Part shown: piece by piece, positions 49,330 to 55,734 of the stretch
Layout of the letters: the number at the start of each line of letters is the position of its first letter
Numbering within the stretch: position 1 is the stretch's first letter
Assembly (NCBI RefSeq): GCF_009729055.1
Contig: NZ_CP045484.1
Span: forward strand, 1,488,001 to 1,552,000
DNA length: 64,000 nt
Source: Sulfurisphaera ohwakuensis
GTDB taxonomy: Archaea > Thermoproteota > Thermoprotei_A > Sulfolobales > Sulfolobaceae
Direction: 5' to 3'
The notes under the pieces: generated by a model
What the model was told of the DNA's origin: nothing
Database searches by the model: none
Seen by the model: only the letters and a program-made list of their open reading frames with translations
Program-made: the position numbers and the translations under genes

Positions 49330-50448
49330 ATGGCTAGGAGGGTTAAAGCGATCAGAGCTACTGTTTCTATGAAGATCGCCCTATCTGAACCCCTCCTAGC
49401 CCTTGTGAATAACTACGTAAAAGCCCTCCGTTTCGCCCTATTTTAGTTGAAGGAAAATGTCCCGAATCCTAATGAGAAGGAAGTTTTAGAAAAAGTCCAT
49501 GAAGGACTGTATGAGAGGTTAAAAGAAGAATATAATCTACCATCAAAGGTTGCCCAAGACTGTTATCGTGAAGCTCTCTCAGTATACAAGGGCTGGTATA
49601 ATAATCCGAGAAGGGGTCGTTTCCCAAGAGTATATAAGCCAACAGTTTGGCTAACTCCTAAAGCAAGTTATAATGTTGACTTAGATAATATGACTGTTAG
49701 GATAGCAAGTGTTGGTGAATTTCAAATTCTAGGTTATCCTAGAAACCTCAAGGAGTACTTAAGCTGGAGGATGAAGGAGGCTAGGTTAGTGGTTAAGGGT
49801 GATAAGGCTTTTCTTAAGGTTGTTTTTGAGAAACCGTTGGAGAAGGCTAAACCAGGGGAAAGTATTGCTGTTGATGTTAACATGAGCGAGATTGTTGTTG
49901 GCAAGGATGATACTCATTACGTTAGGATTCCAACTCGTTTGCACGAGGTTCATCACTGGAAGTCTTTAGCCGAGAGATTGCAGAAGAAATACTCAAAGAG
50001 GTGGAGGGAGAATAAGAGGATTCTGCATAGGATTCGTTCTTTTCATCAAAAGGCTAGGCGTATTATGGAGGATTTCGCTAGGAAGGTTGGGAAGTGGGTT
50101 GTTGAGATTGTTATAGATTTTGGTGCTAATGTTATTAAGTTGGAGAACCTTGAGAACCTCATCAAGAACGTAGATAAACTACCTAAAGAGTTTCGCGACA
50201 AACTTTATCTAATGCAGTATCGTAGGATTCAGTATTGGGTTGAGTGGCAGGCTAGGAAGCACGGTATTCTAGTTCAATACGTTAATCCCAAATATTCTTC
50301 CGTCTCTTGTCCTAAGTGTGGTAAAAGGATGAGGGAGGTCTCTCATCGTTGGTTTAAGTGTTCATGTGGTTATGAGAATGATAGGGATGTTATTGCTGTA
50401 GTTAATCTGAACAGGAGGGGGTCTCTGACCCTCTCGTCTGCCCACTAA
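49330..50448 (+). pseudogene. tnpB: TnpB RNA-guided nuclease gene with an in-frame amber stop
   Basis: The frame starts [20 protein letters not shown] at 49330, is interrupted by TAG at 49444-49446 (codon 39, probably Trp TGG in the parent) and continues for 333 codons from TTG 49447 to the stop at 50448. The downstream part keeps the RuvC acids ([18 protein letters not shown], and [11 protein letters not shown]) and the zinc finger CPKCGKRM...CSCG. So only a single base separates it from an intact protein. A short re-initiated product is possible, because TTG follows the stop directly; it would lack the N-terminal wedge part. Confidence 0.85.
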
Positions 50449-50704: not shown

Positions 50705-51274
50705 TCAACTATTTAGGGGATACTTTAGCTCATAAGGTTTCCAGCCTAGGCTTTCCCTAAAATCATTAATATACTTAATTGCTTTCTCCTTTTCACTTAC
50801 CGGCATGTCCTTCTTGTGAAGGACCCCCATGTATAGAGCGTAGAGCCTTGCATTTATAATCTTAGGACTTAACCCGTAGTCCATGTCTTCTTTTAACTCC
50901 TCTAAGATATCATTAACTTGCTCAGCGCTCTCAAGCCCCTTACCGCTAAAGTCCTTAACTTTTCTACCTAAATAAAGCCTTCCTTTTTCAACTACTACAG
51001 CTTTACCATTTTCAAATGTTATTCTACCTTTAAATACTCTATCATAAAACTGCCAGGCATCTGCAACTTCTGGCTCCAACTGTTGTAATCTTGTTAAAAC
51101 ATATCTCCTAATCTCATCTGTCGAGATTTTTTCCCTATCTTTGATCTTCTCCTCAATTTCTTTAACAATTTCTTTTGCAACTTCGTCAGAGGCCCCTGCC
51201 CTTATTAGCGCATTATATAACTTATCTGAAAGGTATTCTTCCTCTCTTCCAGACCTTTTAATTACCTTAGTCAT
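50705..51274 (-). CDS. ATP-cone domain protein
   Basis: 189 aa. The N-terminal about 95 residues form an ATP-cone: VIKRSGREEEYLSDKLYNALIRAG, ISTDEIRRYVLTRLQQLEPEVADAWQFYDR. This domain senses ATP/dATP in ribonucleotide reductases and NrdR. The C-terminal part is helical and unassigned (YALYMGVLHKKDMPVSEKEKAIKYI). No reductase is nearby. It may be a stand-alone nucleotide sensor. Confidence 0.78.
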   Translation of the reverse strand: MTKVIKRSGREEEYLSDKLYNALIRAGASDEVAKEIVKEIEEKIKDREKISTDEIRRYVLTRLQQLEPEVADAWQFYDRVFKGRITFENGKAVVVEKGRLYLGRKVKDFSGKGLESAEQVNDILEELKEDMDYGLSPKIINARLYALYMGVLHKKDMPVSEKEKAIKYINDFRESLGWKPYELKYPLNS

Positions 51275-51609: not shown

Positions 51610-52047
51610 ATGCGTTTATTTATAATAGCCGTCATACTAATAATTCTTGGAATCTTGTTTCTTTCTCTAATACCTTTTGCATCTCAAAACTCCATAAGGA
51701 TGAGTAATAAGGTTGTAATTCTTCCTCACGAATCCTATACTGTTCCGTATAAAGGTGATTCTGAAGTACTTTTTTCTTATAATTTTTCTAATCCGATTAA
51801 GGTTTACGGTTATCCTTCTGGTGCTACAACTGCTAATGATAGTATTTTATATGTTATTTGTTTCTTTTCCTCTTCTCCAGGTAAGTTAATACTATGTAAC
51901 GCTAATAATATTTCTTCCACAGTATATTTCACTATTTACGAGGCTTACGGCTTAGCCTTAGACATTGAATATATGTTTGTCATTTCTCCCATCTTGATAG
52001 TATCTGGAGTAGCTCTCATAATCTATTCTAAGTTAATAAAGCGATAA
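51610..52047 (+). CDS. Membrane protein with external beta domain
   Basis: 145 aa: hydrophobic helix at about 3-24, a 90-residue polar part with N-glycosylation sequons (NFS, NDS, NIS) and strand pattern, then a second helix near 120-140. So the middle is likely outside the cell with both termini in. No family recognised. Its 3' end overlaps the CHAD gene by 25 bases. Confidence 0.6.
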   Translation: MRLFIIAVILIILGILFLSLIPFASQNSIRMSNKVVILPHESYTVPYKGDSEVLFSYNFSNPIKVYGYPSGATTANDSILYVICFFSSSPGKLILCNANNISSTVYFTIYEAYGLALDIEYMFVISPILIVSGVALIIYSKLIKR

Positions 52048-52655
52048 TGAAATTCCTCTTGACCTTTGATAATCCTTGTTATTGCCCTGAGCGCTTCCTC
52101 TTTGTAAATATTTACGTTAATTTCTGGTGGTGTCAAACCATTACATTCCATTTTTAATATGTTATCCCTTACATCGCCCATCTTTTTTGCAATGATCTTT
52201 ATCTCTTGAGAGCTATAACCTAAAGCTTCAGCTAAGTTCCTTATGATTCTCACTCTTTTTCTAATTTCATGGAAATCGTCTAACTGAGGAATTAACTTAT
52301 ATAAACTGTAAATACGTGTAAACAGAAGAAGCCTACTTCCATAGATTTTCCTTGGTAAAAAGCATATTTTTAGTCGTTTAAATTTCTTTATAGTATCGTA
52401 AGCTAGTTCATCTCTTCTTCTATCTCTTGATCCACAGATATCCATATCCCTTATTCTTCCTAGATTTCCTATAATTTCATTTGAAATGAAAGCACATTCG
52501 GAATTTTCATAAACCGGGTAAAGAGAAGTCAGAACATCGTAATACTTTCTTAAGCTAACCCTAGCATCATGAATACTCTCTTCATCAATTTTAGTTCTTC
52601 CTAGTACTTCTTTAAGATTAAGGTTTGCGTATTCTTCAGGGCGTAAGGTTTTCAA
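52023..52655 (-). CDS. CHAD-domain protein, polyphosphate-binding candidate
   Basis: 210 aa of CHAD type: helical, with conserved His and basic residues in SIHDARVSLRKYYDVLTSLY and GRIRDMDI, then DDFHEIRKRVRIIRNLAEALGY, which is the second half of the repeat. CHAD domains bind inorganic polyphosphate granules. It is the last gene of the operon sixA-ppx-tmk-tmk'-CHAD, overlapping the upstream Tmk-like gene by 20 bases. That link to ppx supports a polyphosphate role. Confidence 0.82.
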   Translation of the reverse strand: MKTLRPEEYANLNLKEVLGRTKIDEESIHDARVSLRKYYDVLTSLYPVYENSECAFISNEIIGNLGRIRDMDICGSRDRRRDELAYDTIKKFKRLKICFLPRKIYGSRLLLFTRIYSLYKLIPQLDDFHEIRKRVRIIRNLAEALGYSSQEIKIIAKKMGDVRDNILKMECNGLTPPEINVNIYKEEALRAITRIIKGQEEFHYRFINLE

Positions 52656-53253
52656 TTTTATTCACTATCTCCTTATGTACTTCATCAAAATTCCTATCCG
52701 TGTAAATAATATTTTCCTCTGAAGAGAGAGAAATAAGAACTTTCTGAAATTCATTAATATAATCTTCATAAGCTGTAAATACATCGCTTTTTATACAAAT
52801 ATCTATTCCCGCACTAAGAGGGTCTAAGAATCCTCTTTTCTTTATTATTCTCTTTATGATTTCTTCTGGTCTTGAGATAAGGGAAAAGTATATTGCCGGT
52901 CTAGGAAAAATAGACAAAACATCATTCATCCAGTCTTTCTCTAATCCTCTTACTAGTCCCCATGACATTAGGGTTAATATGTAGCCATCAGCTAATGCAA
53001 TAAAACCAGAGTCTAATGAAGGTTTAACATAGTTCTCAACTTGATCTGCCAGATCAGTAACATAAGCTAAAAATAGTGTCCTTCTTTCAAATACTATATT
53101 TCTTTTAACTTGTGAAATTCTCTCACCTATTAACTTTGACATCTGTAATCCAAAAGTTACTGTACCATAACCTTCTTTTTCTAGGTAACGTTTAACAGCC
53201 TCTAAATGGGCTGTCCTACCAGATCCCTCAATTCCCTCAAAAGCTATTATCAA
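52636..53253 (-). CDS. Degenerate thymidylate-kinase-like protein
   Basis: 205 aa, paralogous to the gene just upstream. The P-loop is [12 protein letters not shown]: the Walker A lysine is Arg. The catalytic DR(Y/H) motif is DGY (ADGYILT), and the lid region carries [14 protein letters not shown]. Both changes hit the phosphoryl-transfer chemistry, so normal dTMP kinase activity is unlikely. It may act as a partner of the active copy or have a new substrate such as polyphosphate. It overlaps its neighbours by 17 and 20 bases. Confidence 0.8.
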
Positions 53254-53878
53254 TTAACTCACCTACAAATTTTCTAATTTGAATTTGTATTTCCTTCGGA
53301 GTTTTAGTTCCGTCAATCACTATAAAATTCTCATCCTTAACCAATTTATCATAAATCTCAGTAATTAGTCCTTGGTATTTCAGGAATCCCTCCTCTGGTG
53401 ATAATCCTGGAAATATATCAGCACCAGCTTCTTGAGGTTTTATTTTCCTTTTTGATTTCTTTATCCTCTGTAGTGCTATATCTGGTGAAACTCTAATGTA
53501 AAAAGTAATATCCGGTTTTATAGCAAATGAGTACAGTTTCTTAACCCAATCAATATCTACTCCCCTAACGCTATCCCTAGCATAAGCTGTGTAAATATAC
53601 CTATCAGAAATAACTATGAAACCAGACTTTAACATTGGTAAAATATACCTTTCATACCTGTCAGAAAAATCAGTAGCGTGTATTAGACTAAAAGTTAATG
53701 GGGTAAGAAGATCTTTCTTCTTTGCCTCTTTAATTATATCATGAATCCAGTCTGAAGAGTTCCACTCCGTTAGATAGACATCTCTTTTTAATTCTATCCA
53801 ATCCTTAAGTAACGTAGCCTGACTTGATTTACCAGAGCCATCAATTCCTTCAAAAGCTATTAGAACTCCTTTTTTCAT
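53237..53878 (-). CDS. tmk: Thymidylate kinase-family P-loop kinase
   Basis: 213 aa with the intact P-loop [12 protein letters not shown] (9-20), the DRY motif [12 protein letters not shown] and the lid-like [15 protein letters not shown]. It should phosphorylate dTMP to dTDP. Since polyphosphate kinases of the PPK2 type share this fold and the neighbours are ppx and a CHAD protein, a polyphosphate-linked activity is also possible. Its start overlaps the ppx stop (ATGA). Confidence 0.83.
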
Positions 53879-55128
53879 AATCTAACACCATTAACATATT
53901 TCTCAACCGCGTTTTTCACTATATTTCCATAAGATAATAGCTCTTTTTTACTTATTTTTTCACTTAAAAATTTAATGTGTTTCTTCTTTACTTTATTATA
54001 TACAGATTTACATATAAAGCCTATTATTAAGGCTTCTTCTAAGAGAAATCCTGGTAAAACAGAATTCTTGATAAACCTATAACAAGCCTCATAAGGATTG
54101 AGATAACCAGACATCTTAAATATCAGGGATAAATAGGCTGATGAAGCAATATAAAACGAGTACTTTCCTCCTACACTATCTATTATATCCTTGAATATTT
54201 GAATTGGCGGCTCCAACGCATTAAAGTATGCTATCCCATACAACCAACTCTCTCTATTCAGTCTTCTTCCTTCTGTCAGTACTCCTTCCCTCATACCATA
54301 AGCAGAAACAATTAGTTTTTCCGCATTAAAATATTTCATTAACTCATCTATGATGATTGATGCCGTATGTATCGTGAAAGCTCTTTCTTTTCCAATTCCC
54401 GGGAGGGAGGCTCTTGCATCTACATCTAAAGTAGGAAGAAGCGAGGAATATTTACTTATTTGTTTTAATGAAATTGAATAACCATGAATGGATCTTGTTG
54501 GATAAGATGAAAGTTTTAAATCCATCTTTGCTAAAGCTCTCACATTACCTCCAGATCCAACTAAAACACCTTGTCTTTTCAAAGAGAGTGTTGATAACTG
54601 ATCTTTCACTATTTTTCTTATCTCTTTTTCTGGGTAATTTAGGAGTTTTAATGCACCTATAGGTAACTGATAAACTTTACCAATATTTCCCTCATTAACC
54701 TCAATTAGTTCAAGAGAACCTCCTCCAAGTTCAAAAAGTATACCGTTAGAGACGGGTAAAGTATTTAGGATTCCAATCCCGGAAAATCTTCCCTCTTCTT
54801 CTCCAGAAATAATTTTCATTTCATACCCTATGAGTTTACTTAATTTCTGGGCAATCTCATTACCGTTAGTAGCGTATCTAAACGCACTAGTAGCAACTAT
54901 TTTAACATCCTCCACTTTCTCTTTATCGATGATCTTCTTAAAAATTGAAAAGGCTTCTTCAGCTTCTCTAATTTTACTCTCTCCTATAGGTTCTCCTTCT
55001 TCTAACCCTTCTCCTATTCTTACAAAAGACTTAAGAGAGCCTATAATTCTAAAAGTTCCATTAGGAAAAACTTGGTATAGGACTAAACGAAAGGAATTAA
55101 AACCAGCATCAATAACTGCTGATAACAT
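53875..55128 (-). CDS. ppx: Exopolyphosphatase (Ppx/GppA family)
   Basis: 417 aa of the actin/Hsp70-like ASKHA fold. [16 protein letters not shown], the catalytic Glu in [28 protein letters not shown] and [12 protein letters not shown] (phosphate loop) are as in Ppx. The C-terminal 120 residues form the helical HD-like part. Releases phosphate from polyphosphate ends. It sits second in the five-gene operon. Confidence 0.9.
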
Positions 55129-55130
55129 AA

Positions 55131-55610
55131 TTAAATCATCTTAAGCACCTTCTGAGTTAAAAGCATTTTTAAAACACCTTTGTTTTCTTTTAAATCATAA
55201 TCAATCATAGCTATACCTCCTTTCTTAATTTCAACACTTCCACCTGTCAGTGCTTTAACTAAACCAGAGAGATATGGTTCGTGACCCACAATTAGTACTG
55301 TCATATTGTCTGGAAACTCCTTTATCTTTTCAATAAATAGAGATGGATCCTTATCTGGTATGAGATCATCATAAGTCTCTATTTTTAGACTATCTACCCC
55401 CATTTTATCCAATATAGCTTCTGCTGATTGATATGCTCTTAAATAGGGGCTGGAAACAACTTTATCAATTTTTATCCCCATTTCATCAAGAAAAGTAGCA
55501 ATTCTTTTCATTTGTTTTATTCCTTTCTTCACTAGTTTTCTATCTTTATCATCTTTTCCCTCAATTTGAGGTTCAGCATCTCCATGCCTTACTATAATTA
55601 AACTAAGCAT
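55131..55610 (-). CDS. sixA: SixA-type phosphohistidine phosphatase
   Basis: 159-aa histidine-phosphatase-fold protein: IIVRHGDAEP with the catalytic RHG, SSPYLRAYQSAE, and GHEPYLSGL with the second His. SixA acts on phosphohistidine; related members cut other phosphoesters. First gene of the polyphosphate-type operon, two bases before ppx. A TATATAAAC sequence lies upstream on the minus strand. Confidence 0.88.
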   Translation of the reverse strand: MLSLIIVRHGDAEPQIEGKDDKDRKLVKKGIKQMKRIATFLDEMGIKIDKVVSSPYLRAYQSAEAILDKMGVDSLKIETYDDLIPDKDPSLFIEKIKEFPDNMTVLIVGHEPYLSGLVKALTGGSVEIKKGGIAMIDYDLKENKGVLKMLLTQKVLKMI

Positions 55611-55734
55611 GCTAACTATATCTTCGACTGTTCCTATTTAAGGTTTTCTATATAAACTATATAATAGTATAAGGTTATATTATTATATGTGACGTCTATA
55701 TGTTTACATTTTTTTCTCCATTACATACTAGGTT

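What the first reader, a model, noticed from the sequence alone, without database searches (positions are those of the whole stretch)
52023..55610. Five-gene operon linking SixA, Ppx, two Tmk-like proteins and a CHAD protein: a probable polyphosphate system
Five genes run sixA-ppx-tmk-tmk'-CHAD with gaps of 2 bases or overlaps of 4-20 bases, so they are translated together. Ppx degrades polyphosphate and CHAD domains bind it; both are established. PPK2 polyphosphate kinases share the Tmk-like P-loop fold, and as far as I recall these organisms lack classical ppk genes. The Tmk pair may therefore hold the missing polyphosphate-making kinase, with SixA acting on a phosphohistidine or phosphate intermediate.
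Basis: partly seen in the sequence, partly recalled or inferred. Interest (0 to 1): 0.82.

Follow-up and report, generated by a model that had tools for sequence, protein, structure and literature searches.

The report
Sulfolobales polyphosphate kinase operon (PPK3)

Summary
Observation confirmed: sixA-ppx-tmkA-tmkB-CHAD on the minus strand, one 2-base gap, overlaps of 4, 17 and 20 bases. The order is kept in 26 of 31 Sulfolobaceae genomes while flanking genes change. All 31 carry another, housekeeping-type Tmk; none has PPK1 or PPK2. TmkA keeps every kinase motif but has Arg-Asp where true Tmk has Tyr-Gln. TmkB is a degenerate paralogue (DR to DG in 25/25 copies, Walker Lys to Arg in 16/25). 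CHAD keeps the residues shown to bind polyphosphate. Best explanation: a reversible two-subunit polyphosphate kinase (catalytic TmkA, regulatory TmkB) working with Ppx and CHAD. This is already known: two held papers cite Hofmann et al. (bioRxiv 2024; JBC 2026; not held) for the Sulfolobus enzyme; that it is this gene pair rests on my memory of the abstract plus agreement with my data. Beyond that, the same tandem pair occurs in Nitrososphaerota and more than ten bacterial phyla, often next to Ppx, CHAD, SixA and PhoU genes, usually with Arg in TmkB's Walker A motif. Whether that range has been published I could not check.

The parts
55635..55647 (-). candidate archaeal promoter (BRE AAAACC + TATA-like TTAAATA), 25-37 bases before the sixA ATG
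   Evidence: sequence; similar elements at about the same distance in several relatives
55131..55610 (-). SixA-type histidine phosphatase, 159 aa
   Evidence: TIGR00249 97.7 bits, above cut-off; R8-H9-G10, R58, E78, H110 at least 95% conserved in 27 sequences
53875..55128 (-). Ppx/GppA-family exopolyphosphatase, 417 aa
   Evidence: PF02541 149.7 bits, TIGR03706 221.8 bits but below its cut-off; same family as S. acidocaldarius ppx (Saci_2018, PMC7831078)
53237..53878 (-). TmkA: Tmk-like P-loop kinase, 213 aa; proposed catalytic subunit of the polyP kinase (cPPK3)
   Evidence: near-identical to ST1543, PDB 2plr; K17, R74, D92-R93-Y94, R101-D102, K147 invariant in Sulfolobaceae
52636..53253 (-). 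TmkB: degenerate Tmk-like paralogue, 205 aa; proposed regulatory subunit (rPPK3)
   Evidence: Walker A Lys is Arg here; DR is DG and ADR is ADQ in all 25 Sulfolobaceae copies; model pLDDT 84.6, best fold match ST1543
52023..52655 (-). short CHAD-domain polyP-binding protein, 210 aa
   Evidence: PF05235 E 9.8e-5, slightly under cut-off; H29, R32, R36, R69 invariant, the residues shown to bind polyP in SsCHAD (PMC6537752)

Best explanation
The five genes form one polyphosphate-cycling operon. TmkA (catalytic) and TmkB (a pseudokinase-like regulatory partner) together act as a reversible polyphosphate kinase of the PPK3 type: ATP + polyP(n) to ADP + polyP(n+1), probably favouring ATP formation when energy charge is low. 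CHAD holds the polymer or docks the enzymes on it; Ppx trims it to phosphate; SixA is a small phosphatase of unknown substrate. Shown here: gene order, conservation, motif losses, separate housekeeping-type Tmk, absence of PPK1/PPK2, joint decay in some genomes. Shown by others: polyP binding by SsCHAD; Ppx activity; a crenarchaeal PPK in S. acidocaldarius. Inferred or recalled: that this pair is that kinase, the heteromeric complex, the direction preference, and any role of SixA.
For: Order kept in 26/31 Sulfolobaceae with changing flanks. No PPK1 or PPK2 in any of 31 genomes although control genomes ring. Separate Tmk-like gene in all 31, and only one Tmk-type match per genome elsewhere in the order. 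TmkA keeps the catalytic motifs but has R101-D102 where housekeeping Tmk has Y-Q. TmkB: DG in 25/25, ADQ in 25/25, Walker Arg in 16/25. Joint decay: G059 keeps sixA but has only a ppx fragment abutting a CHAD fragment, Tmk pair gone; G151 has ppx in two frames and tmkB split by an insertion. Outside the family the pair recurs beside Ppx (39/79), SixA (29/79) and CHAD (17 or more); in 22 neighbourhoods the commonest families are Ppx-GppA 12, CHAD 10, HD 10, His_Phos_1 7, PhoU 5. Literature: Hofmann 2024 and 2026 cited as the crenarchaeal PPK.
Against: The Hofmann papers could not be opened; the identification with this gene pair is from memory. ST1543 (TmkA) is deposited and was studied as a dTMP kinase (PDB titles; references), so dTMP kinase activity in vitro is not excluded. 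No activity, complex or expression was tested here. ppx is split in G011 and G066 while the Tmk pair stays open, so the genes are not always lost together. Two thirds of sampled non-Sulfolobaceae genomes with the pair also have PPK2.
Confidence: 0.87

Rival explanations
1. TmkA is a second dTMP (or broad dNMP) kinase and TmkB its helper; co-location with Ppx and CHAD reflects general phosphate or nucleotide metabolism, or polyP used as phosphate donor for NMPs.
For: TmkA passes the dTMP kinase equivalog model and its S. tokodaii orthologue is crystallised as a dTMP kinase.
Against: Another Tmk-like gene in all 31 genomes; R-D in place of the Tmk Y-Q motif in all 105 A proteins; the pair tracks polyP genes in distant phyla and is gone together with most of ppx and CHAD in G059.
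Confidence: 0.08
2. The pair senses or regulates polyP (or nucleotide) levels for Ppx and CHAD, and another unidentified enzyme makes polyP.
For: TmkB is kinase-dead-looking; CHAD and Ppx already suffice to bind and degrade polyP.
Against: TmkA's active site is intact in all sampled copies, unlike a sensor under relaxed catalysis; held papers say the crenarchaeal polyP-making enzyme has been characterised in S. acidocaldarius.
Confidence: 0.04
3. Chance or merely local clustering of unrelated genes.
For: Archaeal genomes are compact and short gaps between genes are common.
Against: Same five-gene order across 26 genomes with changed flanks and the identical order in two Nitrososphaerota loci, L084 and L109.
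Confidence: 0.01

Closest known systems
PPK3, the crenarchaeal polyphosphate kinase of Sulfolobus acidocaldarius (Hofmann et al., bioRxiv 2024; J Biol Chem 302:111283, 2026)
   Same: From memory of the preprint abstract: two Tmk-annotated genes (Saci_2019 catalytic, Saci_2020 regulatory) downstream of ppx; ppx = Saci_2018 is confirmed by PMC7831078. This window carries the same pair in the same place.
sixA-ppx-dTMP kinase-CHAD cluster of biomining archaea (PMC10892726, Figure 2)
   Same: Same gene cluster, reported as conserved.
   Different: That paper, in the passages read, discusses CHAD and copper; I saw no proposal there that the Tmk pair makes polyP, and it says the crenarchaeal synthesising enzyme was not yet identified.
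PPK2 polyphosphate kinases
   Same: P-loop kinase of the Tmk-like fold class; same type of reaction proposed.
   Different: No Pfam PPK2 match; no GRDAAGKG/DRSWYNR motifs; profile match only 8.6%.
PPK1 polyphosphate kinase
   Same: Same proposed reaction, also clustered with CHAD in Acidithiobacillus (PMC10892726).
   Different: Unrelated fold with phospho-His; absent from all 31 genomes.
Housekeeping thymidylate kinase
   Same: Clear homology (profile 99.8%).
   Different: YQ replaced by RD, different LID (KxxEAG), separate clade.

Membership tests
PPK3 (crenarchaeal polyphosphate kinase) | two adjacent Tmk-like genes directly downstream of ppx | tested here: met
   that this defines PPK3 is recalled, not read
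PPK3 (crenarchaeal polyphosphate kinase) | one subunit with intact kinase motifs, partner regulatory | tested here: met
   motifs only: TmkA K17/D92/R93/R74 invariant; TmkB degenerate; regulation itself not tested
PPK3 (crenarchaeal polyphosphate kinase) | distinct from the organism's dTMP kinase | tested here: met
   separate Tmk-like gene in 31/31 genomes
PPK3 (crenarchaeal polyphosphate kinase) | ATP/polyP phosphotransfer activity | not testable with these tools
   needs enzyme assay
PPK2 | PF03976 match and GRDxAGKG / DRSWYNR motifs | tested here: not met
PPK1 | PF02503 gene in the genome | tested here: not met
   0/31
dTMP kinase (functional sense) | TIGR00041 above cut-off | tested here: met
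   TmkA yes (109.6), TmkB no (50.6)
dTMP kinase (functional sense) | DRYxxSxxAYQ motif as in the housekeeping-type Tmk | tested here: not met
   R-D replaces Y-Q in 105/105 TmkA-type proteins; 13/13 housekeeping-type copies have Y-Q
CHAD | Pfam PF05235 over the gathering score | tested here: inconclusive
   22.9 against 25.6 bits
CHAD | His29/Arg32/Arg36/Arg69 needed for polyP binding in SsCHAD | tested here: met
   invariant at the same numbers
Ppx/GppA | PF02541 over the gathering score | tested here: met
   149.7 bits
SixA | TIGR00249 over cut-off, RHG motif and second His | tested here: met
   97.7 against 74.5; R8 H9 G10, H110

The most novel reading that the evidence does not exclude
The TmkA/TmkB pair is an old, two-subunit polyphosphate kinase shared by Sulfolobaceae, Nitrososphaerota and more than ten bacterial phyla, currently hidden under thymidylate kinase annotations. 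Its regulatory subunit is marked by an Arg in place of the Walker A Lys (82 of 102 copies), and the pair travels with Ppx, CHAD, SixA and PhoU genes.
Probability: 0.5. Interest if true: 0.65.

Novelty: already known. Interest (0 to 1): 0.42.

Why it matters
Sulfolobales accumulate polyphosphate, which is tied to metal resistance, motility and biofilms, yet lack every classical polyphosphate kinase; this operon carries the enzyme that fills the gap. Family models still name its catalytic subunit a dTMP kinase. If the bacterial and Nitrososphaerota pairs do the same job, polyphosphate synthesis has been overlooked in many genomes scored as lacking PPK1, and a conserved pseudokinase subunit becomes testable as a switch between making polyP and making ATP.

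Tried and rejected
Hofmann 2024/2026: tried by DOI, PMC id and PubMed id, not held; searches for PPK3, cPPK3, Saci_2019 found nothing useful. PPK2 homology of the pair tested by Pfam and hhalign: rejected. CHAD by PDB sequence search: no hit. A first A/B/C tree contained badly cut reference rows and made B paraphyletic; rebuilt without them, A, B and C are each one group. A TmkA-TmkB complex could not be modelled with these tools. TnpB-like and ATP-cone-like neighbours were not followed.

Full report
What is there. On the minus strand, five ORFs follow each other as sixA (55610-55131), ppx (55128-53875), tmkA (53878-53237), tmkB (53253-52636) and CHAD (52655-52023), with a 2-base gap and then overlaps of 4, 17 and 20 bases. 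The window is a Sulfurisphaera relative: TmkA is nearly identical to ST1543 of S. tokodaii (PDB 2plr). A TATA-like element lies 25-31 bases before the sixA ATG, with similar elements in several relatives, which suggests a single leaderless promoter.

Conservation. Tmk, Ppx, CHAD and SixA were searched in all 31 held Sulfolobaceae genomes. The window and 25 others have the five genes in the same order and strand. The next genes upstream stay beside the operon only in the two nearest relatives, so the conserved unit is these five genes. The other five genomes: G125, G154 and G148 lack the pair, CHAD and ppx and have only distant SixA-type matches; G149 (79% complete) has sixA and ppx, each at a contig end, and no pair or CHAD; G059 has intact sixA and the remnant described below.

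Housekeeping Tmk and classical kinases. Every one of the 31 genomes has another Tmk-like gene elsewhere (the G148 match is weak, E 5.7e-4), and other families of the order show at most a single Tmk match per genome. PPK1 (PF02503) and PPK2 (PF03976) have no match in any of the 31, while control genomes ring. This agrees with published surveys (PMC6864096).

Two different Tmk-like subunits. TmkA keeps Walker A Lys17, Arg74, and Asp92-Arg93-Tyr94 in all Sulfolobaceae copies, but carries Arg101-Asp102 where all 13 housekeeping-type copies have Tyr-Gln, and a different LID (KxxEAG). TmkB has DG instead of DR and ADQ instead of ADR in 25/25 Sulfolobaceae copies, and Arg for the Walker A Lys in 16/25. 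It is nonetheless well conserved (44 invariant columns), folds like ST1543 (model pLDDT 84.6; TM about 0.8 to 4nzy), and so looks like a maintained non-catalytic partner rather than a decaying copy. By profile TmkA is Tmk-like (99.8%), not PPK2-like (8.6%).

Partners. CHAD just misses Pfam's cut-off, but its invariant residues include H29, R32, R36 and R69, the residues whose joint mutation abolishes polyP binding in SsCHAD (PMC6537752; wild-type KD about 45 nM). Ppx belongs to the characterised Sulfolobus exopolyphosphatase family. SixA has the RHG motif and second His; its substrate is unknown.

Decay. In G059 sixA is intact, ppx residues 1-195 (with a stop) run into CHAD residues 62-167, and the pair is gone. 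In G151 ppx is split between two frames, tmkB is split by about 2.8 kb carrying transposase-like ORFs, and CHAD was scored with an internal stop in one alignment. In G011 and G066 ppx is split while the Tmk pair is open. Some of these could be assembly errors; I did not test that.

Literature. The cluster was drawn in PMC10892726 Figure 2, whose introduction says the crenarchaeal polyP-making enzyme was not yet identified. PMC11677633 (December 2024) says it was characterised in S. acidocaldarius by Hofmann et al. 2024; PMC13318637 (2026) cites Hofmann et al. [quoted passage not shown] Neither original is held. From memory of the preprint abstract: Saci_2019 is the catalytic and Saci_2020 the regulatory subunit, both annotated thymidylate kinase, downstream of ppx; Saci_0893 is the real Tmk; polyP-dependent ATP formation is favoured. 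Ppx being Saci_2018 (PMC7831078) and my motif data agree with this. I therefore file the finding as already known.

Wider range. A scan of one genome per species with the TmkA alignment found 538 or more relatives. Of the 79 best outside Sulfolobaceae (42-53% identity; labelled Nitrososphaerota, Acidobacteriota, Nitrospirota, Chloroflexota, Planctomycetota, Melainabacteria, Verrucomicrobiota, Myxococcota and others, mostly metagenome bins), 77 have a second Tmk-like gene close by under the criterion, and the output shows one in L107 as well, on the other side of Ppx. Ppx lies in 39, SixA in 29 and CHAD in at least 17 of these loci. Two Nitrososphaerota loci, L084 and L109, have the full SixA-Ppx-TmkA-TmkB-CHAD order. 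In 22 neighbourhoods the commonest Pfam families are Ppx-GppA 12, CHAD 10, HD 10, His_Phos_1 7 and PhoU 5. Walker A is Lys in 105/105 TmkA and Arg in 82/102 TmkB. TmkA, TmkB and Tmk proper each form one group in a quick tree (support 72, 82, 100), and A and B distances correlate (Mantel r 0.88, 0 of 1000 permutations as high), as expected of a pair inherited together. In 398 sampled Thermoproteota genomes the TmkA type occurs only in Sulfolobaceae and two other families, which I take to be Nitrososphaeria from the named loci. In 50 pair-bearing genomes outside Sulfolobaceae PPK1 was found in 10 and PPK2 in 33; many are incomplete. The function of these pairs is inferred from relatedness and neighbourhood, and I could not check whether the 2026 paper already describes them.

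Noticed in passing
L075-L153 (e.g. L084:3876-8244, L109:3714-8024): The TmkA/TmkB tandem pair, with Arg for the Walker A Lys in most TmkB copies, occurs in Nitrososphaerota and many bacterial phyla next to Ppx, SixA, CHAD and PhoU genes.
   Followed up: partly
L042:5822-8584: tmkB of one g5 genome is split by about 2.8 kb holding transposase-like ORFs; ppx of the same operon is in two frames.
   Followed up: partly
L059:3141-4680: In G059 sixA stays intact while a ppx fragment abuts a CHAD fragment and both Tmk genes are gone.
   Followed up: partly
L060:3832-5034 and L061:3323-3793: G149 has ppx and sixA each close to a contig end, so they may be adjacent; no Tmk pair or CHAD was found in this 79% complete genome.
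   Followed up: no
L087, L103, L112, L116 and other Melainabacteria-type loci: Here both members of the pair keep the Walker Lys and DRY, so both may be active; these loci showed no Ppx, SixA or CHAD within about 6 kb by the profiles used.
   Followed up: no
window 49447-50448: TnpB-like protein with a CPKCG zinc-finger motif (by eye, not searched).
   Followed up: no
window 50705-51274: ORF that by eye resembles an ATP-cone (nucleotide-regulated) domain protein; not searched.
   Followed up: no
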